In this document: one piece after another, positions 129 to 24,182 of the stretch
How the letters are laid out: the number at the start of each line of letters is the position of its first letter
How positions within the stretch are numbered: the stretch's first letter is position 1
NCBI GenBank assembly: GCA_944391815.1
Contig: CALXUV010000070.1
Location: 1 to 37,129 of the forward strand
DNA from: an uncultured Clostridia bacterium
GTDB taxonomy: Bacteria > Bacillota > Clostridia > Oscillospirales > CAG-272
DNA: 37,129 nt
Direction of reading: 5' to 3'
Notes under the pieces: generated by a model
Seen by the model: the letters and a program-made list of their open reading frames with translations, nothing else
Told to the model about the DNA's origin: nothing
Database searches by the model: none
Position numbers and translations under genes: made by a program

Positions 129-173
129 TGGTCTGAGTGACAAGACTTGAACTTGCGGCCTCTACCACCCCAA
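129..173. repeat. Left attachment site (orphan tRNA-Pro 3' end)
   Basis: This 45-bp stretch is identical to 24138-24182, the 3' part of the intact tRNA-Pro gene including encoded CCA, T arm and variable region up to the anticodon loop. Here it is not followed by the 5' half of a tRNA, so it is the displaced chromosomal tRNA 3' end left when the element integrated. The identity stops sharply on both sides, which fits a strand-exchange core. It marks the left border of the element. Confidence 0.93.
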
Positions 174-649: not shown

Positions 650-871
650 ATGGCTGCAAGCTACAAAAAACTATTCAAGCTGATGATTGATCGCGAGATG
701 AAAAGCAAAGAACTCGCCGCATTGGCAGGTATAAGCCCGGCAACAATCGCAAAAATGAAAAAGGACGGAGCTACAATCAGCAGCGATGTGCTGGTAAAGA
801 TATGCACGGCACTGAACTGTGATATCAACGATATTTTTGAAGTTATCCCCGACACACTGGATAATAAATAA
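650..871 (+). CDS. XRE-family helix-turn-helix regulator of the defence operon
   Basis: A 73-residue single-domain Cro/C1-type DNA-binding protein. The helix-turn-helix is visible as a stretch beginning KSKELAALAGIS and continuing through PATIAKMKKDG, followed by the family-typical tail with a CTALNCDINDIFE-like segment. It starts at an ATG preceded by aggtga. It is the first gene of the operon, 13 bp ahead of the HNH gene. A short XRE protein at the head of a restriction or defence operon usually acts as a controller that represses or times expression; that role is inferred from family and position. No operator palindrome was identified. Confidence 0.85.
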   Translation: MAASYKKLFKLMIDREMKSKELAALAGISPATIAKMKKDGATISSDVLVKICTALNCDINDIFEVIPDTLDNK

Positions 872-884
872 TCGGAGAACTGCC

Positions 885-1580
885 ATGTTGCAAGAATTTT
901 TCAAGAGATATGTCCGTTTAAAAGGACTTTCTGAAAGAACTGTCGGGCATTATGTTACCGGCATTAATTCCATAAATGTGATTTTGGAAAAGTATAATTT
1001 CCCAATAAGGAATATTTTTGAAGCCAAAACTGTTTCAGATCTTGAATCAATCAAAATGTTCTTACTTTCCAACGCGGAGTTTCAAGAGAAAAATCGAATA
1101 GGACACAACATGTACAGCGTTTCCTTCCGACATTTTTGTGAATTCGTCTGCGGTGATTATGAGTTTTTCAATCATAATATTCAGCAAATGGATATAGTTG
1201 CCGAAAAACCGACGATTATGACAATAACTACAACGGCTTATCATCGAAATCAAATAATTGTAGATCAGTCATTGGAAGGAGCGGGATATTGCTGCGAGCA
1301 TGATGCCGAACATAAAACGTTTATTGCACAATCGACCAATCATGCATATATGGAAGGACATCATCTCATTCCTATGAAATATCAAGATGCTTTTAATTGC
1401 AGTATAGATGTTTATGCAAATATCGTATGCCTTTGCCCGATATGCCATAAGCTACTGCATTACGGGCAGGCAAAAGATAAAAAATATGTGGCTGAGGAAT
1501 TGTATGAAAAAAGGCACGAAAGGCTGATTAACAGCGGTATTGATTTGTCGAAACGTGACTTTTTACATCTGGTGATATAA
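885..1580 (+). CDS. HNH endonuclease of the defence operon
   Basis: A 232-residue protein starting at the ATG at 885 behind cggaga; an upstream in-frame ATG at 819 would overlap the regulator and has no better ribosome site. The first roughly 70 residues (LKGLSERTVGHYVTGIN...) resemble the SAM-like helical core-binding domain of phage integrases, a possible DNA-binding part. The C-terminal third carries an HNH nuclease signature: EGHHLIPMKY, then the central Asn in an ANIVCLCPICH segment and a CxxCH...LH metal-binding pair. An earlier CC...H cluster may add a zinc site. It abuts vsr (1-bp gap) and the methyltransferase. It could be a cognate restriction nuclease or a modification-dependent one; the sequence does not decide. 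Confidence 0.8.
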   Translation: MLQEFFKRYVRLKGLSERTVGHYVTGINSINVILEKYNFPIRNIFEAKTVSDLESIKMFLLSNAEFQEKNRIGHNMYSVSFRHFCEFVCGDYEFFNHNIQQMDIVAEKPTIMTITTTAYHRNQIIVDQSLEGAGYCCEHDAEHKTFIAQSTNHAYMEGHHLIPMKYQDAFNCSIDVYANIVCLCPICHKLLHYGQAKDKKYVAEELYEKRHERLINSGIDLSKRDFLHLVI

Positions 1581-1581
1581 T

Positions 1582-1992
1582 ATGGATAATCATACACCCG
1601 AACAACGGCATAAGAACATGCAAGCCGTAAAAAACAAGGATTCACAAATAGAGCTGATGCTGCGAAAAGAGTTATGGAATCGCGGTCTGCGTTATCGCAA
1701 AAACTCCAATCGAGTATACGGGCATCCCGATATCGTATTTATAGGCAAAAAAGTTGCAGTATTCTGTGATAGTGAATTTTGGCACGGATATAACTGGGAA
1801 GAACGAAAAAAGGACTTCAAGTCACATCAGGAATTTTGGATTCCGAAAATAGAGCGCAACATGGAACGAGATGCGGAAGTTAACGCAAAATTACGTGAGG
1901 ATGGATGGACCGTCCTTCGTTTCTGGGGAAAAGACATTAAGAAAAATACGGCACACTGTGCGGATATTATAGAAAAGGACTTAAAAAGGTAG
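1582..1992 (+). CDS. vsr: Vsr-type (very short patch repair) endonuclease
   Basis: A 136-residue protein of the usual Vsr length. The N-terminus RHKNMQAVKNKDSQIE is the family hallmark, followed by the catalytic GHPDIVF strand with the conserved Asp, a FWHG segment, and the C-terminal VLRFWGKDIKKN block. Vsr nicks 5' of the T in T:G mismatches created by deamination of 5-methylcytosine, so it normally travels with a C5-methyltransferase. Here it directly precedes one (4-bp gap), which makes mutation avoidance the simplest role. It ends in TAG, which shows that TAG is an ordinary stop in this element. Confidence 0.93.
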   Translation: MDNHTPEQRHKNMQAVKNKDSQIELMLRKELWNRGLRYRKNSNRVYGHPDIVFIGKKVAVFCDSEFWHGYNWEERKKDFKSHQEFWIPKIERNMERDAEVNAKLREDGWTVLRFWGKDIKKNTAHCADIIEKDLKR

Positions 1993-1996
1993 AGTT

Positions 1997-3124
1997 ATGC
2001 CATTGAGAACAATAGACCTATGTGCGGGCATTGGGGGGATCCGAAAAGGATTTGAAATGACCGGGCATTATAACAATGTTTTGTCAGCCGAAATAGACAG
2101 GTATGCTTGTTTAACATATCAGCATTTATACGGTGAGAATCCAAATAATGATTTGACAACCGACCAATTTAAAGATTTGGTTGACCGCACGGAGTACGAT
2201 GTTCTTCTCGCAGGCTTTCCATGCCAAACATTCAGCCGCGCCGGCAATGAAGAGGGATTTAATGACGACACAAAAGGTATAATATTTAACCATATTGCAG
2301 AGATCATTCAAAGAACGCGACCCATGGCAATCTTTTTGGAAAATGTTGATAACCTTGTCAAACATGATAACGGGAATACATTTTCCACAATTATCAATAA
2401 ATTGGAAATCGTACTGAATTATAAAGTGATTGGCATTGATTATGGTATTGACGGATCTCCCATTATAACCGGTAATGAAAAAAGATTTGTACGAAATTCT
2501 AAAAACTTCGGAGTGCCTCAAAATCGTCCGCGAACATATATTATGGGGTTTGATAGAGAACGATATGATATTAACATCCTGAACTCTCTTCCGGATTTGC
2601 CGCAAAGTAACGATCTGCACATTTATGAGGATTTGAGAGATCTTTTGGAGTTACAAGCTGATGCTCGTTTCTATATGTCCTCCGGTTATTTTGATACGCT
2701 TGTCAAACATAGAAAAAGGCAACGCGAAAACGGGAATGGATTCGGATATAGAATTGTTAATGCTCCCGAAATCGAACATCCTGTGGCAAATACAATAATG
2801 GCAACCGGCGGATCGGGAAAAGAGCGTAATTTGATTTATGATCCGCAAGAAGGCATTGCCGGACAAATAATAGCAACTAAAACTACTCCTCTTAACTCCT
2901 ATGGCATACGTGTAATGACGCCGCGCGAATGGGGCAAACTTCAAGGATTTGTTAATTATGCATTTATAAATGAAAACGGTGAAGATGAATTTGAATTTCC
3001 CGCCGGAATATCCGATTGCCAAAAATACAAACAATTCGGCAATTCCGTTACTATACCCGTTATACAAACAATGGCAGAGTTTATGACTGAATGCCTTCAA
3101 GAACTCGGAGAAGATGTCGAATAA
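1997..3124 (+). CDS. drmMII: C5-cytosine DNA methyltransferase (DrmMII type)
   Basis: A 375-residue single-chain C5-methyltransferase. Motif I is IDLCAGIGGIRKGF near the N-terminus (SAM binding), motif IV is GFPCQTFSRAG with the catalytic Cys at about residue 76, motif VI is FLENVDNL, motif VIII is QNRPRTYIMGF, and motif X is QFGNSVTIPV near the end. All catalytic motifs are intact. Modification by a cytosine methyltransferase marks self DNA in class 2 DISARM; position directly before a drmE-like gene and drmA/drmB supports that assignment. The target sequence cannot be deduced. It follows vsr with a 4-bp gap and is separated from the next gene by 47 bp. Confidence 0.93.
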   Translation: MPLRTIDLCAGIGGIRKGFEMTGHYNNVLSAEIDRYACLTYQHLYGENPNNDLTTDQFKDLVDRTEYDVLLAGFPCQTFSRAGNEEGFNDDTKGIIFNHIAEIIQRTRPMAIFLENVDNLVKHDNGNTFSTIINKLEIVLNYKVIGIDYGIDGSPIITGNEKRFVRNSKNFGVPQNRPRTYIMGFDRERYDINILNSLPDLPQSNDLHIYEDLRDLLELQADARFYMSSGYFDTLVKHRKRQRENGNGFGYRIVNAPEIEHPVANTIMATGGSGKERNLIYDPQEGIAGQIIATKTTPLNSYGIRVMTPREWGKLQGFVNYAFINENGEDEFEFPAGISDCQKYKQFGNSVTIPVIQTMAEFMTECLQELGEDVE

Positions 3125-3171
3125 CTCTGATTCTCCCAATTAACCATTTGTAAAATGCGGAGGCTGACATT

Positions 3172-5814
3172 ATGCTTGGCGTATATGATAGTATGAAAAA
3201 ACTCATAGATAAATGTGATTTATACTTTGATGGACATATGATATCAAAAGAATTGCTGGTCAAAAACTATGCAGAATTTTTGGCGGGAAATTTTGAAAAA
3301 AAGCATAATGTTGCCATATCTTTACACACCGGTTCTATTTGCTTTGATATAATTACTGTCTTGTTTACGGCACTCAGTAATATCATGTATAATCAAGACA
3401 ATGCCGAAGACTATGTGATGTCACTTAACGTAGGTGATACCGTTCTATATAATAAAAAAATTTGCAAATTTAACGGCATTACTATATTGTCTGAAAGCTC
3501 TGACATTCCAAGAGCGATTTTATATTCAGAACATATAGATCATGGTTATGTAATGCCAGATACGGATTATGTTCAAAAAGCTTGGTGGTATAAAATTTCA
3601 CCATACCAAGGGAATTCCAAAAAACTTGGTGCACGAGGTGCAAGAAGCGACGGAAAAAAGAGAACTGATTTTCTGGCATCAGTATTTGAAATGAAACCGG
3701 ATGAAATACCGTCATTTGTTACAACATCATCGGTTATTGTTATGAATCGAGATCTATCTGAAAGAATCATTGGTAATTTGGAAATCGAATATGATTCTAA
3801 AAGGATAAAAATTACAGAAATCCTGCCCGTTTCCTATTGTTCTGAAAATGAAGAATATCCATACGGCGGAAATCCGGGAAGAATTGAACCTGCATTAAAG
3901 ATTACGAACAACATTTCCAATGCAAGAAGTATAGTTACCGGTGAATGGCAAGGAAATAAAGATTGGGAAAACAACATTATAGGCGTTTCCATTCTCGGAT
4001 TCGGTGCAATTTCTCGTGCCAGGACAGAAGTGTCTGAAATGATGAAGAGAAGAAAACTCAAATATGTTTTTATATCATACAACATTTCTTCCGAAGATGG
4101 AGAAACATTGCTGGATGAAGTGGAAGACAGTGCAGTCTTCGCTTGCACACCAGAATATCTCCTTAATTACTCGTTGCCTATCGTTGATCAAAATCCATAT
4201 ACAATGGAGTTGGATAAACAGGTTGACTCGGCAATCAATCATGAGACCATTGCGTTACCTGTAAAAACTTTCGATTGTGACTGGAACAGATATAAAAATG
4301 TGCAATTTGCATTATCTCGCTTGCGTCATTCGGGATATAAAGAAGTGGAGGACTTTGTTCCACTCGCATATTCGGTTATGAATCTTTTGTTGACGGCTGT
4401 ATTTCCCTTTGACCTGATGGAGAGATTGGTTGAAACCGGTAATTTGGAAGTTGAATCGCCTTTACAAAGGCTGCTTCGTTTAACTGATATGATCCCTTCT
4501 TTCGGCGGAGAATATAGAGATGCGGCAAAAATGATTTTGGATTTTCTGGAAGATGGCTATACCAAATTGCTTTCATGTTCATCCAAGCAGAATGCATTGT
4601 TCGAATTATTGGATGATTATCGTAATCGTAAAGTTGCCATTATTGTTCCGAAAGCATATTACTCGGGCATTCTTTATAATCTCAACATTTTGGATTGGTT
4701 TGAGGATCCAAGACAACTTTGCATATCAACTGCGAATAAATTTGATTATTCTCAGCAATATGATGTGGTTATTGCGATTGGCACATTTTGGGGTAAAAAG
4801 TTTGATCCTTTCCGTTGCAGAGCTTCCTCAACTGTATATGTAATAGTGAGCGCTGTGGAGGAAAATATTTTCAAGTATCGAAAAAAACTTGCCATGTCTA
4901 TTGAACGCAAATTTAATATCAGTGCAAAAGTACCGATTGATCACATCGAAGATACAGAAGAAGAGTATTCGCCGGGAGTCACAGAAGAAGAAGTATCGCA
5001 TGTTATAGAGTCTGCGTCTGATGTAAGCAAATACATAGATCACATATTTGAAACAAAATCTTTGGATATGCTGAATGTAAGTGCAGGCGCACGCTGCAGC
5101 ACAACGGAGATATCTCATATTGCTACTTGTGCCGATGGCGAGACTATATTTTTTACAAAAAAATACAGAGCGTATGTTTTCGACAGTGCTAGAGAGGATG
5201 TTTTGGAAGTGTCAGTGGACAAGTTGTCTCCGGGTGACACAGTGATTTTTAAGTCCAATAACGCCGAAACGAAAGATATTGTTACGACTTTATTGGATCG
5301 ATATATTGACGAATATCATACAACAAGTGAAGATGTTCAGATGGCATATCTAAAGGCTCGCTATTGGAAAGAGATTCTGAAAAAATATCAAAAAGATAAC
5401 AATCTGACATTCAAACAAATATCAAAGCGCCTTGAAAAATTTGGTTCAGCAAAACATGAGGTAACGATACGCAGTTGGCTTACGGAAGATTCTTATATTG
5501 TCGGACCACAAGATTGCGAAACATATATTGCAATTGCCAATATGACTCAAGACGCCGACATGTTGGCAGATCCGGCATCATTTTGTAATTCATGTGAGAG
5601 AATCAGAAAAATTCGTGTTGGAATTCTAAAACTTATTGCAAGAGCAATTATCAGCAAATATAGCGGTAAGCTATTTGAAGAAAATGATATGGCAAATGTT
5701 GTATCAGAGAACATTGAAGATATATCAACATTGATACAAATAGAATCAATAACTCCTGTATTTGAGAAAAAAGCTCCAATTAACATGGTTAACAGACCTA
5801 TCAGTATAAATTAA
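3172..5814 (+). CDS. drmE: DrmE-like DISARM class 2 protein
   Basis: A large, 880-residue protein with no intact textbook motif, starting at an ATG behind gcggagg. The assignment to DrmE rests on size, on position between a C5-methyltransferase and drmA, and on class 2 operon logic. Residues about 45-65 (SLHTGSICFDIITVL) occupy the place of a Walker A loop but lack the GKT/S. Residues about 480-600 contain a helicase-C-like pattern, with VAIIVPKAY, a YDVVIAIGTFWGKKFDPF segment and an SSTVYVIVSAVE strand. I infer a possible degenerate helicase fold. The last roughly 150 residues include a KQISKRLEKFG...VTIRSWL stretch that could be a DNA-binding helix-turn-helix. Lower codon GC matches the rest of the operon. 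Confidence 0.75.
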   Translation: MLGVYDSMKKLIDKCDLYFDGHMISKELLVKNYAEFLAGNFEKKHNVAISLHTGSICFDIITVLFTALSNIMYNQDNAEDYVMSLNVGDTVLYNKKICKFNGITILSESSDIPRAILYSEHIDHGYVMPDTDYVQKAWWYKISPYQGNSKKLGARGARSDGKKRTDFLASVFEMKPDEIPSFVTTSSVIVMNRDLSERIIGNLEIEYDSKRIKITEILPVSYCSENEEYPYGGNPGRIEPALKITNNISNARSIVTGEWQGNKDWENNIIGVSILGFGAISRARTEVSEMMKRRKLKYVFISYNISSEDGETLLDEVEDSAVFACTPEYLLNYSLPIVDQNPYTMELDKQVDSAINHETIALPVKTFDCDWNRYKNVQFALSRLRHSGYKEVEDFVPLAYSVMNLLLTAVFPFDLMERLVETGNLEVESPLQRLLRLTDMIPSFGGEYRDAAKMILDFLEDGYTKLLSCSSKQNALFELLDDYRNRKVAIIVPKAYYSGILYNLNILDWFEDPRQLCISTANKFDYSQQYDVVIAIGTFWGKKFDPFRCRASSTVYVIVSAVEENIFKYRKKLAMSIERKFNISAKVPIDHIEDTEEEYSPGVTEEEVSHVIESASDVSKYIDHIFETKSLDMLNVSAGARCSTTEISHIATCADGETIFFTKKYRAYVFDSAREDVLEVSVDKLSPGDTVIFKSNNAETKDIVTTLLDRYIDEYHTTSEDVQMAYLKARYWKEILKKYQKDNNLTFKQISKRLEKFGSAKHEVTIRSWLTEDSYIVGPQDCETYIAIANMTQDADMLADPASFCNSCERIRKIRVGILKLIARAIISKYSGKLFEENDMANVVSENIEDISTLIQIESITPVFEKKAPINMVNRPISIN

Positions 5815-5824
5815 GGAGTGCGTT

Positions 5825-8800
5825 ATGGTTAATGATTACATAAGCGTTCGAAAAGAATATGTGAAACGCATAAAGAGCGAATTGTTAGGACCGGGTTCGG
5901 AAGTGTGTATTCCAGACAAAGAGCATGAATTGATTTCCAGCTCTCCGAATGTAAGATACTCTATAGGGATTTTATTTCCGCAAAAGCAACGCATGACTCG
6001 AGATAATAACGATGCTACAGACGATGATGTTGTAACAGAAAACGAGGAGATTGTTGTTGAAGACATCTCTTTGCCAAACAAAGTCTCCAACCCCGGCGAT
6101 GAAATTTCCGACTCAGAAGAGGATTCGCTTGATGAGCAAATAGGACTTGCTATGCAAAATTTGCCTTCATCAATGGGATATTCATTTTTTGCCAAAGGAG
6201 ATTGCGATAAACTTGTTTTTTGCCTTTCGTTTGCAACATACAAAAAGAGCAAACTCGAAGATTGCGCTTATCCCGTACCGGAAGTTCTGCCGGATGGGTA
6301 TACGGTTCCTCCGGAAGTGAACTATTGTCTTAAGTATGACGCTGAATATAAGTGCCTGCGTCCTGCTTGTAAAATTACAAAACAAGATATAAAGCGGTTG
6401 CAAGAAATTGATACAATTCCGGAAGGCGAACGTCCATGGCTTATCAATGGATTATATCGTTTATATGATCAGTTTAATTTGGGATATGTTCGTCAACCGC
6501 ATAGAGACGACATTACCCTTGAATTTAAGGGTAAAAATTATTGTGATACGGATGTGGTAATTGATGATATTCCAGTAAGAATGACTGCGTTGAGAAGGTT
6601 AATACGAGATGATGTATATTCTGTTACGGTTATGCTTGTCAATCCACAGGTAAACGATTCACATACCGCTAATCCCAAGGAGTGTTATTTTCAATCCAAG
6701 TTGCGAATATCCAGTGAAAACAACGCTTTTGTGTTTGCGGATATCACCAAGTATTCTCAATACGGAAATGATGATCCTGAAGAATTGTCCAACCGTCTGC
6801 TTTATCGTAAAAAAAGAGTATACGGTTATGGGCTTGGCACTTCCACTACATGGGATATTAATGATAACGGTATCGGCTGGATCGAAAATGAATTTTATCC
6901 GCAAATTGAAGTCCCCTCCATGAATTTCGGATTGGACACGAACAGCAAAATTCCCGGGTATACGTTATCAATGAAACAACTGTCTGATTTGGGCAACTAC
7001 AGCAGAGAGGATATTTTAACGGGACTTTCTGTTTTTGTGTCTGAGTATAAGGATTGGATTGACAATCTTAATCAACAAATTTTTGACGATGATACAATGC
7101 GTAAAACAGCAGCTTTACATATAAAAAATTGCCGTATTTCTTGCCAAAGAATGATTGACGGTATATCGATTTTAAAATCGGATGATTTGGCATGGGATGC
7201 TTTCAGGCTTGCCAATCGTTCCATGTATATGCAAAGAATTCAACTGTTTATCCAACAAGTTATGTCAAAAGAAGACCGCTATGATGGCGATGAGATTCTG
7301 GAAGATATACTTGATAATTTGGATTACAGGGATTCCGAACCCACATTACTTAAGTTATTGAAAAAAATCGGAGAAGCGGAAAAGTTTAATGATCCGACAT
7401 GGCGTCCCTTTCAGCTTGCATTTATGCTCATGAGTATAAAATCAATAACATTGGACAATCCAGTGGACGATAATCCGGAGAGAGATATCGTTGACTTGAT
7501 TTGGTTTCCCACCGGAGGAGGTAAAACAGAAGCCTACCTCGGTTTGACTGCTTATACCGTCTTTCACAGAAAGTTAAAACATAAGGACATCTCCGGTGGT
7601 ACAGCCGTAATTATGAGATACACTCTCCGTTTGCTTGCAGCACAACAGTTTACACGTGCCGCAACTTTGATTTGTGCATGTGAATATATTCGAAATGATT
7701 CTGCCAAAGGCAAAAAAGCACAATATCCTGCATATGATCTCGGCAACGAAAGAATCACAATTGGATTGTGGATAGGCGGAAGTCATACGCCCAATCGTAA
7801 CCGAGGAGATAAATCGGCAGCAAAAGAGTGCCTTGACGAGCTTACACATGCAACAATTAAAGATCTAAAATATAAAAAGGATAAATATAATAAGTTTCAA
7901 GTTCTTAAATGCCCTTGGTGCGGAACTAAAATGACCAAAGAAATTGCCAAAGACAATATAATCGGTGACTGGGGTTACCAAATGGATTCGCACCATAAAT
8001 TCTATCTTAAATGTACCAACCAATCTTGTTGCTTCCATGATCGAAAATTACCCATTCAAATTGTTGATGAGGAACTATATTCCGCACCGCCGACTTTACT
8101 GTTTGGTACTGTGGATAAGTTTGCTATGATGGCATGGAAAAAGGAAGTGGGCAATTTCTTTGCAATAGGTTCTGCAAATCGTGCTCCCGAATTGATTATC
8201 CAAGATGAGTTACATTTGATTTCCGGACCTCTCGGAACCATGGTTGCGATGTTTGAAACGGCCATTGATTATTTATGCCAAAAGAAAGGTATTCGCCCGA
8301 AGATTGTAGCATCCACTGCAACTATAAGGCGTGCCAAAGAACAGTGTGCAGCTCTTTACAATAGAAATGTAGCACAGTTTCCATCGCTCGGTTTGGATGC
8401 TGATGATTCTTACTTTGCAAGAGAAGCTGTAATCGATCACGAAAATGGAAAATACGGCAGATTATATGTTGGCTTGATGTCTTCCGGCAAGACCAAGGCG
8501 ATGATGGAGGTACGCTCTATAGCATCATTGATGCAATGTATCCATCGGATGCCTTTAACGGACGAAATCAAAGATAAATTCTGGACATTGACAACGTATT
8601 TCGGTAGCTTACGTGATCTTGGTAAATGCAGGACTCTGGCAGAGGACGATATTAAAGATGCTATAACACGCCAGGCACAGAGATTGGGAACAAAACAAGA
8701 TGCGAGAAGGTTTTATTCTCCTGATGAATTGACCAGTCGCGCTTCCACCACCGAGCTTAACGAAACATTGGACAAACTTGAAAAGACGCAGTATTCTCAA

Positions 8801-9517
8801 AGTAATTATAATAAAGTTTCGCATTTGCTGCTTGCGACAAATATGATTTCCGTCGGAATCGATATTGCACGATTAAACGTAATGCTTCTTGTTGGGCAAC
8901 CGAAGTTGACGAGTGAATATATTCAGGCATCGAGTCGTGTAGGTCGTTCTTACCCCGGCATAGCATTTATAATGTACGATGCATCGAAAAGCAGAGATCG
9001 TTCTCACTTTGAACAGTTTAAACAGTATCATGAGTCATTCTATCGTTATGTAGAACCAACGGGAGCAACACCGTTCTCGAAGCCTGCAAGAGATCGTTCC
9101 CTTAAAGCTTTATTGGTGGCAATGATTCGTAATGCTGAACCAACATTGAGTTCTGAAAAAGATGCGTCACAGTTCAGAGTAGAAAAATATGAATCAACCA
9201 TTGAAGAACTGAAATCATATATTATTGATCGAAGTGTCGGAATTAATAACCGTATAAATCCCGATATGTTGAGTGATCGTGCGGATATATCCGACGAAAT
9301 AGATGATTTCTTCCGTGAGTGGGAGGAGATTGCGTCGTTGTATGACAAAGATCATTTCTCATATGGAGAAAAATACATGGTAAGAAACCCTGAAGCCGGT
9401 GAAGGCAGACTGCTGAAATCTTTCGGTACTGATGATCGCAACGGCTTTGACGCTATGACTTCTATGAGAAATGTAGATACGACCGTATCTGGAAACATTA
9501 TTGTTTGGGAGGACTGA
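5825..9517 (+). CDS. drmA: DISARM helicase DrmA
   Basis: A 1230-residue SF2-type helicase. The N-terminus (VRKEYVKRIKSELLGPG, then PNVRYSIGILFP) is characteristic of DrmA. Walker A is TGGGKT at 563-568, Walker B is DELH at 794-797, motif III is STAT shortly after, and the C-terminal helicase lobe has ATNMISVGIDIARLN and SSRVGRS (about 1036-1042). Two Cys pairs between Walker A and B (CPWC about 696-699, CTNQSC about 730-735) suggest a zinc finger insert. The acidic region around residues 65-105 is low complexity and probably disordered. DrmA pairs with DrmB to load on foreign DNA in DISARM. The drmB start lies 2 bp after its stop, so translational coupling is likely. Confidence 0.95.
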   Translation: MVNDYISVRKEYVKRIKSELLGPGSEVCIPDKEHELISSSPNVRYSIGILFPQKQRMTRDNNDATDDDVVTENEEIVVEDISLPNKVSNPGDEISDSEEDSLDEQIGLAMQNLPSSMGYSFFAKGDCDKLVFCLSFATYKKSKLEDCAYPVPEVLPDGYTVPPEVNYCLKYDAEYKCLRPACKITKQDIKRLQEIDTIPEGERPWLINGLYRLYDQFNLGYVRQPHRDDITLEFKGKNYCDTDVVIDDIPVRMTALRRLIRDDVYSVTVMLVNPQVNDSHTANPKECYFQSKLRISSENNAFVFADITKYSQYGNDDPEELSNRLLYRKKRVYGYGLGTSTTWDINDNGIGWIENEFYPQIEVPSMNFGLDTNSKIPGYTLSMKQLSDLGNYSREDILTGLSVFVSEYKDWIDNLNQQIFDDDTMRKTAALHIKNCRISCQRMIDGISILKSDDLAWDAFRLANRSMYMQRIQLFIQQVMSKEDRYDGDEILEDILDNLDYRDSEPTLLKLLKKIGEAEKFNDPTWRPFQLAFMLMSIKSITLDNPVDDNPERDIVDLIWFPTGGGKTEAYLGLTAYTVFHRKLKHKDISGGTAVIMRYTLRLLAAQQFTRAATLICACEYIRNDSAKGKKAQYPAYDLGNERITIGLWIGGSHTPNRNRGDKSAAKECLDELTHATIKDLKYKKDKYNKFQVLKCPWCGTKMTKEIAKDNIIGDWGYQMDSHHKFYLKCTNQSCCFHDRKLPIQIVDEELYSAPPTLLFGTVDKFAMMAWKKEVGNFFAIGSANRAPELIIQDELHLISGPLGTMVAMFETAIDYLCQKKGIRPKIVASTATIRRAKEQCAALYNRNVAQFPSLGLDADDSYFAREAVIDHENGKYGRLYVGLMSSGKTKAMMEVRSIASLMQCIHRMPLTDEIKDKFWTLTTYFGSLRDLGKCRTLAEDDIKDAITRQAQRLGTKQDARRFYSPDELTSRASTTELNETLDKLEKTQYSQSNYNKVSHLLLATNMISVGIDIARLNVMLLVGQPKLTSEYIQASSRVGRSYPGIAFIMYDASKSRDRSHFEQFKQYHESFYRYVEPTGATPFSKPARDRSLKALLVAMIRNAEPTLSSEKDASQFRVEKYESTIEELKSYIIDRSVGINNRINPDMLSDRADISDEIDDFFREWEEIASLYDKDHFSYGEKYMVRNPEAGEGRLLKSFGTDDRNGFDAMTSMRNVDTTVSGNIIVWED

Positions 9518-9519
9518 TT

Positions 9520-11850
9520 ATGGGTGTTGAGATTCCAAAGTCTAAAAACCGTTTAAAGAATAAGTTAGCATATTCTGTGCGTGCCTCCCAAGCGGTATTG
9601 CAGTATGGTGTGGGAGCAATGGTTGATTTCAGAGATCGAACCTTGATGACCGCGGCACCGGAGTATTGGGGGGACAGCATAACACGAATACACGATGAAC
9701 GCTTGGAAAAAATCCTCCATGTTGATTATTTTGGCAAACCAGGTGACATGAATGATGCAAAATTCGCCGACGGAATTTCATATGTTCGTTTTCCGGAATG
9801 GTATTTTTGCCCAAGTTGCAGACGATTCAAACCAATTGGTGACTGGGTAAAAGAATACGTCAAAAAGTATCCGCAAAAAACGGAAACCGATCCGAACATG
9901 ATTCAAAAGATGAAATGCCCGAAGTGTTCGCAGGAACTTGTAGTGGCTCGTATCATTGTCGCTTGTCAGGATGGTCACATTAATGATTTCCCATGGACCA
10001 AATGGGTTCATTGTCAAAATTTCGGCGGTAACAAGCCGATCTGTGATGAGCCGGAACTTACAATTACAACCTCTTCGAGTGCTTCGGAAGGTTTGGAAGG
10101 TTTAACACTGAAATGCTTAACATGCGGTGCAACAGCATCCCTTCGTAACGCATTTGATCCTGAAATATTTAAGGAACTTGATAAAAAAACAAACTATCAA
10201 TACGATTTTCGGTGCACAGGCAAACATCCATGGAAACATAAAACTGAAAGTTGTAAGCATCCGGAATACCCCAAGGTATTACAACGAGGTAGTTCATCGG
10301 TTTATTTCCCTGTGACAGAGAGTTCTCTGGTCATACCACCATACTCCAACATTGTTACAACAAAGATCCAAGAAAGCGCAAAATACGCTGAATACAAAAG
10401 TACACTTGCCGGCATTCTCAATACTCCGGGACTTCCGGCAGAAACAGTTGAGCGGATACGCGACACTCAATTGAATAACTATGCACAGCAGATAGCACAG
10501 GAAACTGCAATTTCACTCGAAAAAGTTGTAAGCGTGTTAAAAAGGAAGAACTCTGCTCCTGAAGAAGAGTATAGCACTTCAAGTGTCAAATATCGTACAG
10601 AAGAATATGAAGCCATTACAGGTGAAACCGTAGTAGAAACAGAAGATTACGGCGATTTCCTTCGGGAGAGCGTTAATATGGATGAATATAATCTTCCATA
10701 TTTAAAAAGTATTTCTCTCATACACAAAGTGAGAGAGGTTCAAGCATTGATTGGATTTACTCGATTAAAACCTGTTGATTCATCAGATGAACCGGGTGCT
10801 CAAGGAGTCATTGTCCCCGTAAAAGAGCCGTCAACAAATTGGTATCCCGCTTACGATGTTCGCGGAGAAGGGATATTTATTGAGTTCGACAATGCCGCTA
10901 TTAACCGTTGGAGAACTGAAAACGAAGGGCTTGCGGAAAGAGTTGCCGTATTGAACGAAAATTACAAGAAATCGTTTATAGGTGAAAATCATCCGCGCGA
11001 CATTTCAAGTAAATTTTTGTTGCTGCATACTATATCCCATTTGTTAATTAAACAGCTGAGTTTCGAATGCGGCTATGGTATTGCATCACTAAAAGAGCGC
11101 ATTTATTGCAGCGAGGCAGCTGATGGCAAAGAAATGTCCGGTATTTTAATTTATACAGCTTGCGGAGACTCGGAAGGAACTTTGGGAGGTCTGGTTCGTC
11201 AGGGTCGTTCCGATACATTTCCTAAAATATTCAACAAGGCAATAGATAACGCAAGAACTTGTTCTAATGACCCTGTTTGCAGCTTAAGTCAGGGACAAGG
11301 GCGTGATTCTTTGAATCTGGCAGCATGCTATTCTTGTGCGCTTATTCCCGAAACAAGTTGCGAGGAGTTTAACTCATTTTTGGACCGGGGCGTTGTAGTT
11401 GGAACATTTGATAATCCGAATTTGGGCTTTTTTCAAGGCGCATATGAGGATATCCCGTTGTCAGCGCCACCTTCTGAAACTCATGACATTTCAAAATCAA
11501 TCCTTGTATATAAAGGTGACGGAACGGATATGAGCGACAGTTCCTATCGTGATATTTGGAAGGCAGTGTTAAGTTGGTCTGAAGACAAGGCAGAGATTAG
11601 TTTGCTACACGAATTGGAAGAAAGTGAAGGACTGTTTAGAGGCAAGGAAAAACCCATCCTAAACGGAAGTTTGCAAGACTTTATATCACAAACAGATTAT
11701 ACTTGTGATTTGATTTGGAAACAATCAAAGACCGTGTTCTTGACTCTTGAAAATCAAGATATTGTATCAACAATTCAAGACAGAGGGTGGAATTGTCTTT
11801 GCTCGACGGCATCTATTGATGAAATATTAAAAAACATATCGGAGGTTTAA
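9520..11850 (+). CDS. drmB: DISARM protein DrmB (DUF1998)
   Basis: A 776-residue protein. I place the start at the ATG at 9520 with ggagg 7 bp upstream, rather than the in-frame TTG at 9505 inside drmA. The N-terminus carries the DrmB-typical RASQAVLQYGVGAMVDF segment. Cys pairs CPSC (about residue 97) and CPKC (about 133) followed by CQDGHINDFPW suggest a zinc-binding region. The DUF1998 domain is at about 500-640: HTISHLLIKQLSFECGYG, an IYTACGDSEGTLGGL block, and a Cys cluster with ACYSCALIPETSCEEF. DrmB binds DrmA to form the core DISARM complex. Only 1 bp separates its stop from the next gene. Confidence 0.95.
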   Translation: MGVEIPKSKNRLKNKLAYSVRASQAVLQYGVGAMVDFRDRTLMTAAPEYWGDSITRIHDERLEKILHVDYFGKPGDMNDAKFADGISYVRFPEWYFCPSCRRFKPIGDWVKEYVKKYPQKTETDPNMIQKMKCPKCSQELVVARIIVACQDGHINDFPWTKWVHCQNFGGNKPICDEPELTITTSSSASEGLEGLTLKCLTCGATASLRNAFDPEIFKELDKKTNYQYDFRCTGKHPWKHKTESCKHPEYPKVLQRGSSSVYFPVTESSLVIPPYSNIVTTKIQESAKYAEYKSTLAGILNTPGLPAETVERIRDTQLNNYAQQIAQETAISLEKVVSVLKRKNSAPEEEYSTSSVKYRTEEYEAITGETVVETEDYGDFLRESVNMDEYNLPYLKSISLIHKVREVQALIGFTRLKPVDSSDEPGAQGVIVPVKEPSTNWYPAYDVRGEGIFIEFDNAAINRWRTENEGLAERVAVLNENYKKSFIGENHPRDISSKFLLLHTISHLLIKQLSFECGYGIASLKERIYCSEAADGKEMSGILIYTACGDSEGTLGGLVRQGRSDTFPKIFNKAIDNARTCSNDPVCSLSQGQGRDSLNLAACYSCALIPETSCEEFNSFLDRGVVVGTFDNPNLGFFQGAYEDIPLSAPPSETHDISKSILVYKGDGTDMSDSSYRDIWKAVLSWSEDKAEISLLHELEESEGLFRGKEKPILNGSLQDFISQTDYTCDLIWKQSKTVFLTLENQDIVSTIQDRGWNCLCSTASIDEILKNISEV

Positions 11851-11851
11851 T

Positions 11852-13555
11852 ATGGCAATAATGATTCCCAATCGCCCACATTCGTTTGCTCCTGCCAGCT
11901 TGGAAGGAGTAATGTTTGAGGCATTAGAAAAATTGTCGGATGAATATTATGTGTTTCATTCCTTGAGAATATCAACCGTTGTCGATAATACCTTCCATGA
12001 GAGTGAAACCGATTTCGTCATTTTTAATCAACGATTGGGAATTTTGTGCCTGGAAGCCAAAGCAGGACAAGTTCATTTCGAAAATGGATATTGGTTGTAC
12101 GGTAGCGGTGAACCAATGCACAACGGTGGTCCGTTTAACCAGGCGGCATCAAATAAGTGGAAGTTAATTAAATACTTTGAAAATCATCGATTTACTTCAA
12201 TTTTGGACAAATGCAAGTTTCTTCACGCTGTGTGGTTTCCATCGATAACGGCAATTGATATTAGGGGAATGATACTTCCCACGGATTCCGATAAGGCATT
12301 GGTTATGACATCCGAGGCCTTGAACAATCCTCAACCGTTTATTGAAAAAATATTTTCTATTGAGTTGCCGAATAAACAAGAAACAAATCTAACCGTTTCG
12401 GAAGCCAATCGAATATTAAAAGAAATCTTGTGCCCGCAATTTAACGTATTTCCGTCCGTCAGCTTTGAGGCTGATTTGAAAAAAATTGTTTTTCACAGAT
12501 TACTGGAAGAACAATCCGGGATACTCAATTTTTTGTCCGAACAAAAAACTGCCGTTATTAATGGTGCAGCCGGTACAGGTAAGACCATGATCGCCGTTGA
12601 AAAGGCAAGACGTCATGCAAGCGCCGGTGAGAGAGTGCTGTTTTTGTGCTATAATAATCAGTTGAAATGTTATTTGAGCGACAATTACCGGCATGAAAAC
12701 ATCGATTATTACACAATATCAGGATGGGCGTGCAAGTTGTGCGACTCGGCAACACCTGATTATGCCAAACTTAAAGATGTTCTTGAGGAAATGTGGCTGT
12801 ATGAAACATTTCCCTATACCCATGTGATAATTGATGAAGGTCAAGATTTCGGTATGACTGATGTAGAAGAATCAGATATAATTTGCCAATTGGAAATATT
12901 AATCAAGGACAGTAAAAAGGATACAGCAAGTTTTTATATTTTCTACGATAAGTTGCAGCTCATACAAGCATCAAGTATGCCACACTATATTGCTGATGCT
13001 GATTGTAAATTGACGTTATACAGAAATTGCAGAAATACGGAAAATATAGCAAAAACCTCTCTTTCTCCGATAACGGAAAGAGAGCCAAAGCTAATGGATG
13101 GCTGTATAAAAGGAGCACCGGCAAACTTGCATTTTACGGATTTGATCAGTATTACTGACAAGCTTGATTCGATCCTGGATCGTTTAAAGAACTCAGGGTA
13201 TAAGGATATCATCATTTTAACTTGCAAAACGGAAGAGACAAGTGTTCTTAAAGATTTTGCTCAAAACGGTCGATACAAAAATAAATACCAATTTACAACA
13301 TGCAGAAAATTCAAAGGACTTGAAGCGGATGCAGTTATTTTGATGGATGTTTCTGAGAATAGTTTTGAAGGCGAAAATGCGCTTCTGTTTTATGTCGGAA
13401 CATCACGTGCAAGATTATCTTTGGATATAATAACAACTATGGATGCTGAAGCATGTTTAAGCGTATTGCAAAGTAGTTTTGATAAAAAAGGAAAGATACG
13501 AAATCCACAAAAAGAATTTGCATCTGCGATAAATGCAATCCCAATGCGAATGTGA
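11852..13555 (+). CDS. NERD nuclease-SF1 helicase fusion occupying the drmC position
   Basis: A 567-residue protein starting at ATG 11852 directly behind ggaggt. Residues about 10-120 form a NERD domain, a restriction-endonuclease-like fold: LEGVMFEAL at the start, then SETDFVIFN and LEAKAG, giving the D...ExK catalytic pattern. A UvrD/Rep-like helicase follows: Walker A GAAGTGKT at about 238-245, Walker B DEGQDF at about 328-333, a CRNTENIAK segment, FKGLEADAVILMDV, and motif VI YVGTSRAR at about 513-520. In known DISARM loci this position holds DrmC, a phospholipase-D-type nuclease. No HKD-type motif is present here. A nuclease replacing another nuclease is an attractive inference. It is the last gene of the operon; no clear terminator follows. 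Confidence 0.88.
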   Translation: MAIMIPNRPHSFAPASLEGVMFEALEKLSDEYYVFHSLRISTVVDNTFHESETDFVIFNQRLGILCLEAKAGQVHFENGYWLYGSGEPMHNGGPFNQAASNKWKLIKYFENHRFTSILDKCKFLHAVWFPSITAIDIRGMILPTDSDKALVMTSEALNNPQPFIEKIFSIELPNKQETNLTVSEANRILKEILCPQFNVFPSVSFEADLKKIVFHRLLEEQSGILNFLSEQKTAVINGAAGTGKTMIAVEKARRHASAGERVLFLCYNNQLKCYLSDNYRHENIDYYTISGWACKLCDSATPDYAKLKDVLEEMWLYETFPYTHVIIDEGQDFGMTDVEESDIICQLEILIKDSKKDTASFYIFYDKLQLIQASSMPHYIADADCKLTLYRNCRNTENIAKTSLSPITEREPKLMDGCIKGAPANLHFTDLISITDKLDSILDRLKNSGYKDIIILTCKTEETSVLKDFAQNGRYKNKYQFTTCRKFKGLEADAVILMDVSENSFEGENALLFYVGTSRARLSLDIITTMDAEACLSVLQSSFDKKGKIRNPQKEFASAINAIPMRM

Positions 13556-13658: not shown

Positions 13659-13916
13659 ATGACAAAGATCACGATCGAAGAACTGTACAGAGGCGACAAA
13701 TACTCAATCATGGGAAAGGTCGCAAAGCGAGCTCTGCTGCAAGGCATAGACGAGCGAACCTCGGAAGGTCAGACCAGGATTGAGATGGAGATTGTCCGCC
13801 AAACGCTGATAGTGGTAAACAAAATGAAAGAAAACGGCGACTGCATTGCCGAGGAAAAACTCGGTGACGCGGTCGCTGTCTCTTTATGCGAAGGTGCAGA
13901 CAATGAGTATAATTGA
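13659..13916 (+). CDS. Small hypothetical element protein
   Basis: An 85-residue protein starting at ATG 13659 behind a strong aaggagg. It has no recognised domain; it is charged, predicted mainly helical, and acidic at the C-terminus. It overlaps the next gene by 14 bp, so the pair is translated together. It is the first gene on the GC-richer side of the composition break, which suggests it belongs to the mobility backbone rather than the defence cargo. Confidence 0.65.
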   Translation: MTKITIEELYRGDKYSIMGKVAKRALLQGIDERTSEGQTRIEMEIVRQTLIVVNKMKENGDCIAEEKLGDAVAVSLCEGADNEYN

Positions 13917-14163
13917 GGAATTATGGCACGGCAACATCAACCCGCAGGAAGATAGCATTGAAAATACTGCGGAAATGAGGCAGCTGACGGAATACATATC
14001 ATGGCACCGTAAAGCCGTGGAAGAAACGATGAACGATGAGCAGAAGGAAACGTTTGAGAAGTACATTGATTGCCGAAACGAATACGAAAGCCTGTATCAA
14101 GCCGCCGTATTTACCTATGCTTTCAAACTCGGCGCAAAACTGACTGCCGAGGCACTCGAATAA
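13903..14163 (+). CDS. Small helical protein, DUF6809-like
   Basis: An 86-residue protein starting at ATG 13903 (MSIIEELWHGN), 14 bp inside the previous gene, with aaggtg upstream. The pattern of an N-terminal ELWHGNINP motif, a helical middle, and a C-terminal FTYAFKLGAKLTAEAL segment resembles the DUF6809 family common in clostridial mobile elements. The function is unknown. A terminator follows at 14179. Confidence 0.65.
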   Translation: MSIIEELWHGNINPQEDSIENTAEMRQLTEYISWHRKAVEETMNDEQKETFEKYIDCRNEYESLYQAAVFTYAFKLGAKLTAEALE

Positions 14164-17786: not shown

Positions 17787-19496
17787 ATGGCAGGACTGAT
17801 ACTGAAAACTCCATACTACAAACCGAGAAGCAAAACCGACGGCGGCGGTACGCGTTCGGGCTATGTAAAATATATTGCGACGCGCGAAGGAGCCGAACTG
17901 CTTCCGAGGAGCGGAATGGCAGGTTATGTCGGCGGGAGAAAAGGTTCAAACGGTCTGTTCTCAGACCTCGGTACTGAGATAAATCTTTCGGCTGTCTGCA
18001 AAGAGATCGACGGTTATACGGGGAATGTTTGGGGGCTTATCTTCTCACTGACAAGGGTTGATGCCGAACGTCTCGGATACAACTCTGCAAAACATTGGAT
18101 GAATCTTCTGCGTTCCAGGCGCAACGATATCGCAAAAGAGATGGGCATCTTGCCGGGAAATCTCCGGTGGTACGCCGCCTATCATAACAAAGAAGACCAT
18201 CCCCATGTGCATATGCTGGTGTGGTCGAAGAATCCGTCCGAAGCATATCTTTCTGCGGTCGGGATCCATAACATAAAGAGTGCGGTGGCGGGAGATATCT
18301 TCCGTCAGGATCTGATCTCCGTCTACAAAGAACAGACCGAAGTGCGTGAGGGAATAAAAGAAAAGTTCCGTGAAAAAATGTCGGAAATCGCTTACAGTCT
18401 TCGTGAAGATCCGTCTGAAATTTCTTCGGAGTTCTATCAAAAATTTGCCGAGCTCTGCGGTAAACTTTCGAAAACAAACGGCAAAAAAGTATACGGTTAT
18501 CTTGGCGAAAGTACGAAAAAACTTGTTAACGAGACCGTAAAAATGCTCGCGGAAAGCCGTGAGATCGCAGAACTTTATGACCTCTGGTACAAATGTCAGT
18601 GCGAAACTTACAGGACGTATACCGACGTAATGCCCGGGAAAGTTCCGATAGAACAGAACGAAACTTTCAGATCTCTGCGCAATCAGGTGGTAAAGACTGC
18701 CTCGGAAGTCGGTTCGCTTTCCGAATTCCCGACCGAAAACAGCTCTTATTATGATGACGGAAAGTATGATGACCTTAGTGAAAGCGAGCTCAAGTCAAGG
18801 GCGGAATTCGACGGAGACAGAGATGCGATGTTCCGTTACGGAAGAAAAATATTTGCCGAAGATCCGGACGAAGGAGAATATTATCTGCAAAGAGCGGCAG
18901 AGGAAGGTCAGGTCTATGCGATGTTTTTTCTCTACCGGATGTATAAAAGCGGAACGCTAAAGGGCGACGCGATGAAATATCTGCTCATGGCTGTCGAGAG
19001 AAAATTCGGCGGTGCCGAGTATGAATACGCTCTCTGTCTCAAAGACAAATCAAAAGAACTGTCAATGGATTATCTTATAAAAGCGGCAAGACACGGCTCT
19101 TATCAGGCGGAGTACCAGATCGGGAAAATGCTTCTTGAAAACGGAAAGAAGGATGAAGCACTTGTGTATCTTAAGCGGTCTGCGGAAAAAAGCCACTGGG
19201 CAAGAACGAAGCTCGGACTGCTGTATTACTATCAGCTCGGCGACAGAGAAAAGGGATGGGAATATATATCCGAGGAAGCCATGCGATATCACTACAAGCC
19301 CACCGAAAAAGCATGGGAAGCCATACAGAACGGGCTTGACGCACAGATCGTTTTCGGCATCTGCGACCTATTGTATTACGCCGGAAACATCATCGATGAA
19401 CGCACCGAACAGGGCAGCGGACAGGAGCAGTATACCGACCGGCGCCTGAAACAGCAGGACCGTGCAAAACGGCAAGGAATCGTTATGGATATGTAA
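17787..19496 (+). CDS. MobP/MobL-type relaxase with C-terminal Sel1-like repeats
   Basis: A 569-residue protein. The N-terminal relaxase domain (about 1-270) has the metal-binding histidine triad in YHNKEDHPHVHMLVW (His138, His140, His142) and an early Tyr-rich GYVKYIATREGAE segment typical of MobP3/MobL relaxases. The second half, from about residue 335, contains Sel1/TPR-like repeats such as GEYYLQRAAEEGQVYAMF, DYLIKAARHGSYQAEYQIG and VYLKRSAEKSHWARTKLG. The relaxase nicks oriT and pilots the strand; the repeats probably mediate protein contacts. No coupling protein gene accompanies it, so mobilization in trans is expected. Confidence 0.85.
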   Translation: MAGLILKTPYYKPRSKTDGGGTRSGYVKYIATREGAELLPRSGMAGYVGGRKGSNGLFSDLGTEINLSAVCKEIDGYTGNVWGLIFSLTRVDAERLGYNSAKHWMNLLRSRRNDIAKEMGILPGNLRWYAAYHNKEDHPHVHMLVWSKNPSEAYLSAVGIHNIKSAVAGDIFRQDLISVYKEQTEVREGIKEKFREKMSEIAYSLREDPSEISSEFYQKFAELCGKLSKTNGKKVYGYLGESTKKLVNETVKMLAESREIAELYDLWYKCQCETYRTYTDVMPGKVPIEQNETFRSLRNQVVKTASEVGSLSEFPTENSSYYDDGKYDDLSESELKSRAEFDGDRDAMFRYGRKIFAEDPDEGEYYLQRAAEEGQVYAMFFLYRMYKSGTLKGDAMKYLLMAVERKFGGAEYEYALCLKDKSKELSMDYLIKAARHGSYQAEYQIGKMLLENGKKDEALVYLKRSAEKSHWARTKLGLLYYYQLGDREKGWEYISEEAMRYHYKPTEKAWEAIQNGLDAQIVFGICDLLYYAGNIIDERTEQGSGQEQYTDRRLKQQDRAKRQGIVMDM

Positions 19497-19604
19497 TTGA
19501 TAACAAATTGATAACTCTTGCATTTTGGACTGGATATACCTAAGCCTTTGCGGTATTGTGTATTGCTGAAAAGAAGGCATTTCAAAATACGGAGGTGAAT
19601 GCAA

Positions 19605-20768
19605 ATGGGAAAACGCAGACCGAGCGGTGACGGAATGGTGCGCAAACGCGATGACGGCAGATGGGAAGGCAGGATCGTGATCGGTCATAAAGAAAACGGA
19701 CTGCCTATATACAAATCGGTGCTCTCAAAATCACAGAAGGAACTGACCGCAAAGCTCAATCAGTTAAAGGAAACATACAAAGGCGCAGACCTTACCGAAG
19801 ACTGCTATATGACACTCAGCGAGTGGCTTGACCGCTGGATGGATATTATGATAGGGCTGTCGGCGCGCGAAAGTACGATTCTGAACTACCGGAAATATAT
19901 CAAAAATCATATTGTCCCCTACCTCGGAGATAAAAAGATATCGCTCATCACGACCTCGGACATACAGAAGATGTACACGAAACTCAAAAACGAAGGACGG
20001 GTTCATCCCAAGCCCGACGGAAGCAAAGAACTTGCCGGAGCGACCGTTAGAAGCGTTCATGCGGTGCTTCATGAGGCAATGGAGATGGCGGTAAGTCAGC
20101 GGATCATCATCAGAAACCCGACTGTCGGCACGGTCTTGCCGAAAGTTGTGCCAAAGCCGATCAATCCTTTCAACACCGAACAGCTCGACAAGTTTCTGTC
20201 CGCCATACAAAACGAACCGGAGTGGCACGACCTGTTCTACATGGAGGTCACCACGGGACTTCGCCGAAGCGAGGTCTGCGGACTGAAATGGTCGGACTTC
20301 GATGCGGATTCGGAAAGCATAAAGGTGTCGAGAACGGTAACCCCTGCCCCGCACGGGCTCTTCAGGATCGGAGACACCAAGACGCAAAACGGAATGAGAA
20401 CGGTCATTCTGGTGCCGAGTACGCTGGAAATGCTGAAAGAAAGAGAGAAAAGCGCGGTGTCGCAATGGATATTCCCGAACTTCTTCCTACCGGAACTTCC
20501 GATAAATCCGCATTCGGCATACGCGAAATTCAAAAGCATTCTGAAAAAGTACGGACTTCCGGACATTCGCTTCCACGATTTGCGCCACACATTCGCAACG
20601 CAGGCAGTATTCACGGGAATCAACCCGAAGGTGCTGTCCGACATCCTCGGACACGCGGACGCGAGCTTCACGCTCGACCGATATGCTCATGTGACCGCCG
20701 ATATGCAGGAAAAGGCGTCCGAGATTGTCGGGGGGATCATGACGGATATCCTTAAGGAGGTGGACTGA
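19605..20768 (+). CDS. Tyrosine recombinase/integrase, first of a tandem pair
   Basis: A 387-residue integrase. I prefer the ATG at 19605, 8 bp after ggaggt; the one at 19599 is too close. An AP2-like arm-binding domain sits at the N-terminus (GMVRKRDDGRWEGRIVIG), then the SAM-like core-binding domain, then the catalytic domain with Arg220 (TTGLRRSEVCGLKW), HDLRH at 324-328, GHADAS, and the nucleophile Tyr360. All catalytic residues are present. Its TGA overlaps the ATG of the second integrase. It may perform integration into tRNA-Pro alone or with its partner. Confidence 0.92.
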   Translation: MGKRRPSGDGMVRKRDDGRWEGRIVIGHKENGLPIYKSVLSKSQKELTAKLNQLKETYKGADLTEDCYMTLSEWLDRWMDIMIGLSARESTILNYRKYIKNHIVPYLGDKKISLITTSDIQKMYTKLKNEGRVHPKPDGSKELAGATVRSVHAVLHEAMEMAVSQRIIIRNPTVGTVLPKVVPKPINPFNTEQLDKFLSAIQNEPEWHDLFYMEVTTGLRRSEVCGLKWSDFDADSESIKVSRTVTPAPHGLFRIGDTKTQNGMRTVILVPSTLEMLKEREKSAVSQWIFPNFFLPELPINPHSAYAKFKSILKKYGLPDIRFHDLRHTFATQAVFTGINPKVLSDILGHADASFTLDRYAHVTADMQEKASEIVGGIMTDILKEVD

Positions 20769-24096: not shown

Positions 24097-24138
24097 AGAA
24101 AATCCGTGGAAAACGCACAAGTTTTCCACGGATTTTCT
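24097..24138 (-). terminator. Terminator of the tRNA-Pro gene
   Basis: A perfect 18-bp inverted repeat (24097-24114 and 24121-24138, loop gcacaa) followed on the minus strand by ATTTTTATT. The first arm base is the last base of the encoded CCA. Lying on the element side of the repeat, it would be supplied by the element, not by the original host locus. Confidence 0.85.
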
Positions 24139-24182
24139 GGTCTGAGTGACAAGACTTGAACTTGCGGCCTCTACCACCCCAA
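24138..24182. repeat. Right attachment site within tRNA-Pro
   Basis: 45 bp identical to 129-173; covers the tRNA 3' end from CCA to the anticodon loop, so tRNA function is retained after insertion. Confidence 0.93.

What the first reader, a model, noticed from the sequence alone, without database searches (positions are those of the whole stretch)
885..13555. DISARM class 2 operon in which drmC is replaced by a NERD nuclease-SF1 helicase fusion
Seen: C5-methyltransferase, DrmE-like, DrmA, DrmB (DUF1998) and then, 1 bp later, a NERD + UvrD-like helicase protein with intact Walker A, DEGQDF and SRAR motifs. Known: DISARM is defined by drmA-drmB-drmC with drmC a phospholipase-D-type nuclease; class 2 adds drmE and a C5-methyltransferase. 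Inference: the NERD-helicase supplies the nuclease function or a second DNA-processing motor, giving a distinct DISARM subtype.
Basis: partly seen in the sequence, partly recalled or inferred. Interest (0 to 1): 0.85.

Follow-up and report, generated by a model that had tools for sequence, protein, structure and literature searches.

The report
DISARM defence operon carrying nuclease-helicase, no drmC
This is a bacterial anti-phage operon of the DISARM kind that lacks the usual DrmC nuclease and instead carries a fused nuclease-helicase which, together with an extra piece of its neighbour protein, appears to be shared with a different defence system; it offers a testable answer to what cuts phage DNA in DISARM systems without DrmC.

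Summary
Window 819-13555 holds HNH, Vsr, C5-methyltransferase, DrmE, DrmA, DrmB and, 1 bp later, a 567-aa NERD nuclease-SF1 helicase with intact motifs. No drmC was found in the locus or genome. The operon lies at one end of a likely ~24-kb integrative mobilizable element in tRNA-Pro. The NERD-helicase is no chance neighbour: it adjoins DrmA or DrmB in 31 of the 80 loci with the nearest DrmA, none with a detected DrmC-type PLD, and follows DrmE in 5 of 6 further DrmE loci. But 'replaces drmC' is too simple: close sisters have neither gene. These NERD-helicases branch with Druantia-linked ones, not with other DISARM ones (AU p=0.0016). Best reading: a drmC-less DISARM variant with a docked effector. 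Mechanism inferred.

The parts
129..173 (.). attL-like direct repeat, 45 bp identical to the 3' part of the tRNA-Pro gene
   Evidence: identical to 24138-24182
650..871 (+). small helix-turn-helix-like regulator at the head of the operon (read by eye)
   Evidence: from sequence; no family search run on it
819..1580 (+). HNH endonuclease (likely start ATG 885)
   Evidence: HNH_2 1.3e-4; PADLOC mREase_IV 1.9e-7; relatives in L047, L048, L049, L050, L057, L110 and weaker ones elsewhere
1582..1992 (+). Vsr endonuclease
   Evidence: PF03852 1.8e-27; TIGR00632 146 bits, cut-off 98
1997..3124 (+). C5-cytosine DNA methyltransferase
   Evidence: PF00145 4.4e-65; PADLOC MTase_II 1.1e-77, DrmMII 8.1e-52
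3172..5814 (+). DrmE
   Evidence: NF038316 DrmE_fam 599 bits, cut-off 80; PF24957 DrmE_C 1.6e-10
5825..9517 (+). DrmA, YprA-type SF2 helicase
   Evidence: PADLOC DrmA 1.4e-212; NF038325 919 bits, cut-off 950
9505..11850 (+). DrmB, DUF1998/MZB protein (ATG at 9520)
   Evidence: NF038324 462 bits, cut-off 240; PF09369
11473..11847 (+). C-terminal extra domain ('tail') of DrmB, shared with a Druantia-type helicase; weakly PD-(D/E)xK/Vsr-like fold; candidate dock
11852..13555 (+). NERD nuclease-SF1 helicase fusion (567 aa)
   Evidence: PF08378, UvrD_C_2; RTasNERD-Hel; E18, D54, E68, K70 and K244, D328, E329, R519 invariant in the 26 aligned rows; model pLDDT 86.8
17787..19496 (+). MobL relaxase of the carrying element
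   Evidence: PF18555 5.5e-25
19599..20768 (+). tyrosine integrase 1
   Evidence: PF00589 1.6e-27
20768..21862 (+). tyrosine integrase 2
   Evidence: PF00589 8.4e-26
24138..24182 (.). attR-like repeat, 3' part of the tRNA-Pro gene 24138-24213

Best explanation
A drmC-less, DrmE-type DISARM variant carried on an integrative mobilizable element. As in solved DISARM, DrmA-DrmB would load on unmodified phage DNA ends and translocate (known from Bravo 2022 for another DISARM; inferred here). The C5-methyltransferase marks self DNA (inferred). The NERD-SF1 protein is the DNA-degrading effector: its SF1 motor moves along the strand exposed by DrmAB and its NERD domain (D54, E68, K70) cuts. In this lineage the extra C-terminal domain of DrmB, possibly a decayed nuclease-like fold, shared with a Druantia-type helicase, docks the NERD-SF1 protein. 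Shown: anatomy, conservation, tail/NERD-SF1 co-occurrence, kinship of this NERD-SF1 with Druantia-linked ones (direction of transfer not shown). Inferred: nuclease activity, docking, and use against phage.
For: Gene content; no drmC found. Same gene order in L034/L044. NERD-SF1 adjacent (within 700 bp) to DrmA/B in 31 of 80 DrmA loci, 23 before DrmA and 8 after DrmB; three more of the 80 hold a NERD-SF1 not counted as adjacent: L051, L090, L120; 0 of 80 with a detected DrmC-type PLD. NERD-SF1 directly after DrmE in 5 of 6 further DrmE loci: L145-L148 and L168, not L144. Order-wide DrmB census, 8 of 394 genomes positive: 2 with NERD-SF1, 3 with PLD, 2 with neither, 1 cut by the contig end. PD-(D/E)xK and SF1 residues invariant in the 26 rows I aligned (chosen from about 50); NERD found by Pfam in 22 of 24. 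Tail in 4 of 4 operons with NERD-SF1 directly after DrmB in the close DrmE group, 0 of 7 without (one-sided Fisher 0.003, relatedness not corrected). A tail profile from the four DISARM rows finds held-out Druantia-type L035 at E 4.1e-13 among 5593 frames with no reversed decoy; L035's next gene, 3 bp on, is a 49%-identical NERD-SF1. NERD-SF1 tree places the four with DruE-linked L035-L037 (100/99; DruE matches); AU rejects one DISARM clade, p 0.0016.
Confidence: 0.55

Rival explanations
1. DrmA-DrmB (with DrmE) stop the phage by loading and translocation alone; NERD-SF1 is a second-line effector (backup or suicidal) rather than the primary nuclease.
For: DrmC is reported dispensable and often missing (Bravo 2022, PMC9142583, passages); sisters without adjacent NERD-SF1 or drmC persist; NERD in BREX PglW is read as a backup effector (PMC12839542, passages).
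Against: Invariant nuclease and helicase residues and presence of at least two separate NERD-SF1 lineages in DISARM.
Confidence: 0.22
2. The HNH enzyme (with Vsr and the C5-methyltransferase, a restriction-modification set) supplies the nuclease; NERD-SF1 only processes DNA ends.
For: HNH at 819-1580; HNH genes in L047, L048, L049, L050, L057, L110, three of them sisters without NERD-SF1.
Against: Profiles of these HNH proteins found none in NERD-bearing L044 and L046; the gene lies at varying places.
Confidence: 0.12
3. NERD-SF1 is an independent defence gene carried next to DISARM by chance.
For: The same protein type occurs with no DrmA or DrmB in the fetched stretch (L038, L039, L040, L042, two of them short contigs) and is known next to reverse transcriptases (PADLOC RTasNERD-Hel).
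Against: 31 of 80 and 5 of 6 co-occurrence, 1-bp spacing, and the tail coupling.
Confidence: 0.06
4. The NERD domain is catalytically silent and the protein acts as an SF1 motor only.
For: Some DUF1998-linked nuclease domains are described as inactivated (PMC12458937, section 8).
Against: E18, D54, E68, K70 invariant across 26 diverse rows.
Confidence: 0.05

Closest known systems
DISARM class 2 (type II): drmE, drmA, drmB, drmC, drmMII
   Same: DrmE, DrmA, DrmB and a C5-methyltransferase in one operon
   Different: drmC absent; NERD-SF1 present; DrmB has an extra C-terminal domain; HNH and Vsr added. PADLOC's type II rule as printed requires DrmC (PMC9252829, figure legend passage), so that rule would reject it
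Druantia/ARMADA-type YprA helicase (DruE-like) followed by NERD-SF1 (L035, L036, L037)
   Same: Same NERD-SF1 subclade; same C-terminal tail in L035
   Different: Helicase and DUF1998 in one long protein (L035 1586-aa frame, L037 1727 aa; L036 1335 aa, cut short) that matches DruE; upstream 971-1208-aa proteins match no PADLOC or Pfam family
ARMADA type II
   Same: A YprA-type helicase with a GajB-like SF1 helicase gene behind it (Bell 2025, PMC12458937, section 5); L157 is a possible case: DruE-like protein then a 696-aa GajB/UvrD-like one
   Different: By that paper the SF1 protein carries a RelE-like N-terminus, not NERD (no RelE seen by Pfam in L157)
TALON
   Same: YprA-type helicase with a NERD nuclease (PMC12458937, section 5)
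   Different: TPR-CSD and TBP genes, largely Chloroflexota; not DISARM
DRT-associated NERD-helicase (PADLOC RTasNERD-Hel)
   Same: Best PADLOC model for the protein itself, E 4.5e-57
   Different: Partner is a reverse transcriptase (from the model's name and label)
Human SLFN11/SLFN14, C-terminal half
   Different: rmsd 14.5, so domain arrangement differs; no sequence match of the NERD part

Membership tests
DISARM | DrmA helicase | tested here: met
   PADLOC E 1.4e-212; NCBIfam equivalog 919 vs cut-off 950 bits, not reached
DISARM | DrmB (DUF1998/MZB) | tested here: met
   NF038324 462 bits, cut-off 240
DISARM class 2 | DrmE | tested here: met
   NF038316 599 bits, cut-off 80
DISARM class 2 | C5-cytosine methyltransferase (DrmMII) | tested here: met
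   PF00145 4.4e-65; PADLOC DrmMII 8.1e-52, though MTase_II scores higher
DISARM type II as PADLOC defines it | DrmC (PLD nuclease) | tested here: not met
   none among the window proteins scanned or by profile, nor above cut-off in the genome; rule from PMC9252829
DISARM | protection against phage | not testable with these tools
   needs experiment
Druantia/ARMADA | single-chain YprA-type helicase with DUF1998 | tested here: not met
   helicase and DUF1998 are separate genes, DrmA and DrmB
TALON | TPR-CSD and TBP genes in the operon | tested here: not met
   none among the operon proteins scanned with Pfam
PD-(D/E)xK nuclease (NERD) | NERD domain with D...ExK | tested here: met
   PF08378 2e-8; D54, E68, K70 invariant; activity not tested
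SF1 helicase | Walker A/B and C-terminal motifs | tested here: met
Vsr-type PD-(D/E)xK fold (DrmB tail) | fold match | tested here: inconclusive

The most novel reading that the evidence does not exclude
YprA/DUF1998 immune helicases (DISARM, Druantia, ARMADA) share a plug-in effector slot: a docking domain at the end of the DUF1998 protein plus an SF1 helicase bearing an exchangeable N-terminal effector, moved as one cassette between systems. DrmC-less DISARM is then not nuclease-free but uses such SF1 nucleases, whose two-domain build is that of the C-terminal half of vertebrate antiviral Schlafens.
Probability: 0.35. Interest if true: 0.8.

Novelty: new variant of a known kind. Interest (0 to 1): 0.62.

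Why it matters
How DISARM degrades DNA when DrmC is dispensable or missing is called a mystery in Bravo 2022 (PMC9142583, passages). Here is a recurrent, operon-embedded candidate with intact catalytic residues. A detection rule that requires DrmC would overlook such loci. The tail plus NERD-SF1 pairing gives a concrete interaction to test and suggests effector exchange between DISARM and Druantia-type systems.

Tried and rejected
Considered and rejected: drmC hidden elsewhere; chance neighbourhood; one clade of NERD-type DISARM; tail as a readable Vsr by sequence (hhalign probability 0.6%; no Pfam family). Led nowhere: NERD-helicase in viral contigs, 6 pattern matches, none a relative; sequence search of the NERD part in PDB, nothing at E up to 10; two small NERD-matching frames elsewhere in the genome, not followed.

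Literature: 10 searches of the open-access library. DISARM+drmC+NERD, DISARM+NERD+UvrD and DUF1998+NERD returned only PMC12458937 and PMC10952713, and in what I saw of these no NERD-helicase in DISARM is described. Seen: PMC12458937 abstract, passages, sections 5 and 8; PMC10952713, PMC9142583, PMC9252829, PMC12839542, PMC9482658 and PMC8789055 as passages; the rest as search listings. Supplementary tables could not be read and Ofir 2018 is not held, so 'not in print' is not shown; the class 2 gene list comes from PMC9252829 and recall.

Weak points of my counts: genes were called as longest open frames, so starts in high-GC loci are loose. My PLD profile table missed the annotated drmC of L123, because its frame was extended into DrmB; the 80 loci were also checked by an HxKxxxxD motif scan over all frames of 90 aa or more, which among them found only frames of 786-930 aa (L051, L085, L104, L121). 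A very divergent DrmC could escape both. The 80 loci are the best of 581 by similarity to the window's DrmA, not a random sample. Plasmid DISARM loci were picked by hand: 13 of the 60 listed of 85 records. The 82 genomes overlap partly with those. Rows dropped before the AU test: L038-L042, L087, L090 (long branches or no DrmA). Left out of the 4-of-4 / 0-of-7 count: L043 and L053 (contigs end too early) and L145 (deeper branch, NERD-SF1 before DrmA, no tail). L036's helicase and NERD genes are truncated against each other and were not used for the tail.

Full report
What is there. The window is a whole contig (G000:C70). Window 819-13555 carries, all on the + strand, HNH endonuclease, Vsr, C5-methyltransferase, DrmE, DrmA, DrmB and a NERD-SF1 helicase. 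The NERD-SF1 gene starts 1 bp after the DrmB stop. A 45-bp direct repeat (129-173 and 24138-24182, the 3' part of tRNA-Pro), a MobL relaxase and two tyrosine integrases indicate that the operon is the left part of an integrative mobilizable element of about 24 kb.

DrmC. None in the window. In the genome, PLDc_2 hits are a TOTE primase-helicase-PLD protein and a 711-aa frame that looks like polyphosphate kinase (my reading); the DrmC_I model gave only a sub-cut-off hit to the TOTE protein. The genome is 94.5% complete and the search tool is not exhaustive (it missed the window's NERD domain).

Is the NERD-helicase part of such operons? An order-wide DrmB search found 8 of 394 genomes: the window and L015 have NERD-SF1 behind DrmB, L018-L020 have PLD behind DrmB (Pfam PLDc_2 for L018; motif and similarity for L019 and L020), L016 and L017 have neither, L021 is cut. 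A class-wide search with the NERD-helicase found 10 of 391 genomes: the window; L034 with the same DISARM gene order; L041 with a distant DrmA and DrmB; L035, L036 and L037 behind DruE-like helicases; and L038, L039, L040, L042 with no DrmA or DrmB in the stretch fetched. A DrmA profile scan of named genomes kept the 80 best of 581 loci: 31 have NERD-SF1 adjacent to DrmA or DrmB (23 before DrmA, 8 after DrmB), 25 have only another SF1 helicase adjacent, 24 have neither, 0 have a detected DrmC-type PLD; L051, L090 and L120 hold a NERD-SF1 that was not counted as adjacent. A DrmE family search of 398 genomes, and of 82 in the class of one hit, gave six loci over the cut-off besides the window: five have NERD-SF1 directly after DrmE (L145-L148, L168), one does not (L144); where the region behind DrmB is held (L144-L147) no DrmC gene is seen, though L146 has a 796-aa PLD-motif protein on the other strand. 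Named plasmid examples are Rhizobium ruizarguesonis and Azospirillum ramasamyi (UvrD protein, helicase, DUF1998 protein, NERD protein).

Not a clean replacement. On a 103-row DrmA tree the drmC-bearing rows (L018-L020, L123, L141, L142) lie in one 11-row branch (SH-aLRT 91), while NERD-SF1 is scattered. In the window's own group, sisters L045, L047, L048 and L050 have neither gene. The four operons with NERD-SF1 behind DrmB (window, L044, L046, L049) are not one clade on DrmA or on the DrmB core (AU p 1.4e-47, 8e-53). So the module was lost or gained more than once.

Mechanism. Inferred: DrmAB loads on unmodified phage DNA ends as in the solved DISARM complex (PMC9142583, passages), and NERD-SF1, docked on the DrmB tail in this lineage, degrades the DNA. 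HNH is a rival nuclease in the same operon.

Verdict. A real, recurrent drmC-less DISARM variant; by PADLOC's printed type II rule (DrmC required) it is not a member, though it has the other four parts. New variant of a known kind.

Noticed in passing
window 11852-13555 (model m9b817c3de2fc): Best structural match of the whole NERD-SF1 protein is the C-terminal half of human SLFN11/SLFN14, hinting that the Schlafen linker may be a NERD-like fold.
   Followed up: partly
L016, L017, L098: DrmA-DrmB loci without NERD-SF1 or PLD: an Hsp70-like protein (Pfam HSP70 for L098; by eye in L016 and L017) and, in L016 and L098, a UvrD-type helicase upstream; possibly another DrmAB-based system.
   Followed up: no
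L070-L121 (mostly actinobacteria): DrmA-DrmB preceded by a UvrD helicase and often a ~1585-aa protein; the scanned one (L077) has DEAD/ResIII helicase and a weak sacsin hit (single-linkage cluster spanning 36 loci).
   Followed up: partly
L083 4882-9137; L157 3548-12045: A DrmB and a 2135-aa DruE-like protein with weak tail-like ends, each directly followed by a UvrD helicase of about 700 aa; possible further versions of the same slot.
   Followed up: partly
G000:C42 (L022 4582-7458): TOTE-type primase-helicase with a C-terminal PLD domain in the same genome.
   Followed up: no
L104, L051, L146 flanks: Long PLD-motif proteins (786, 818 and 796 aa) near NERD-SF1-bearing DISARM loci; on the other strand in L146.
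   Followed up: no
window 13846-14163: DUF6809 protein behind the operon; function unknown.
   Followed up: no
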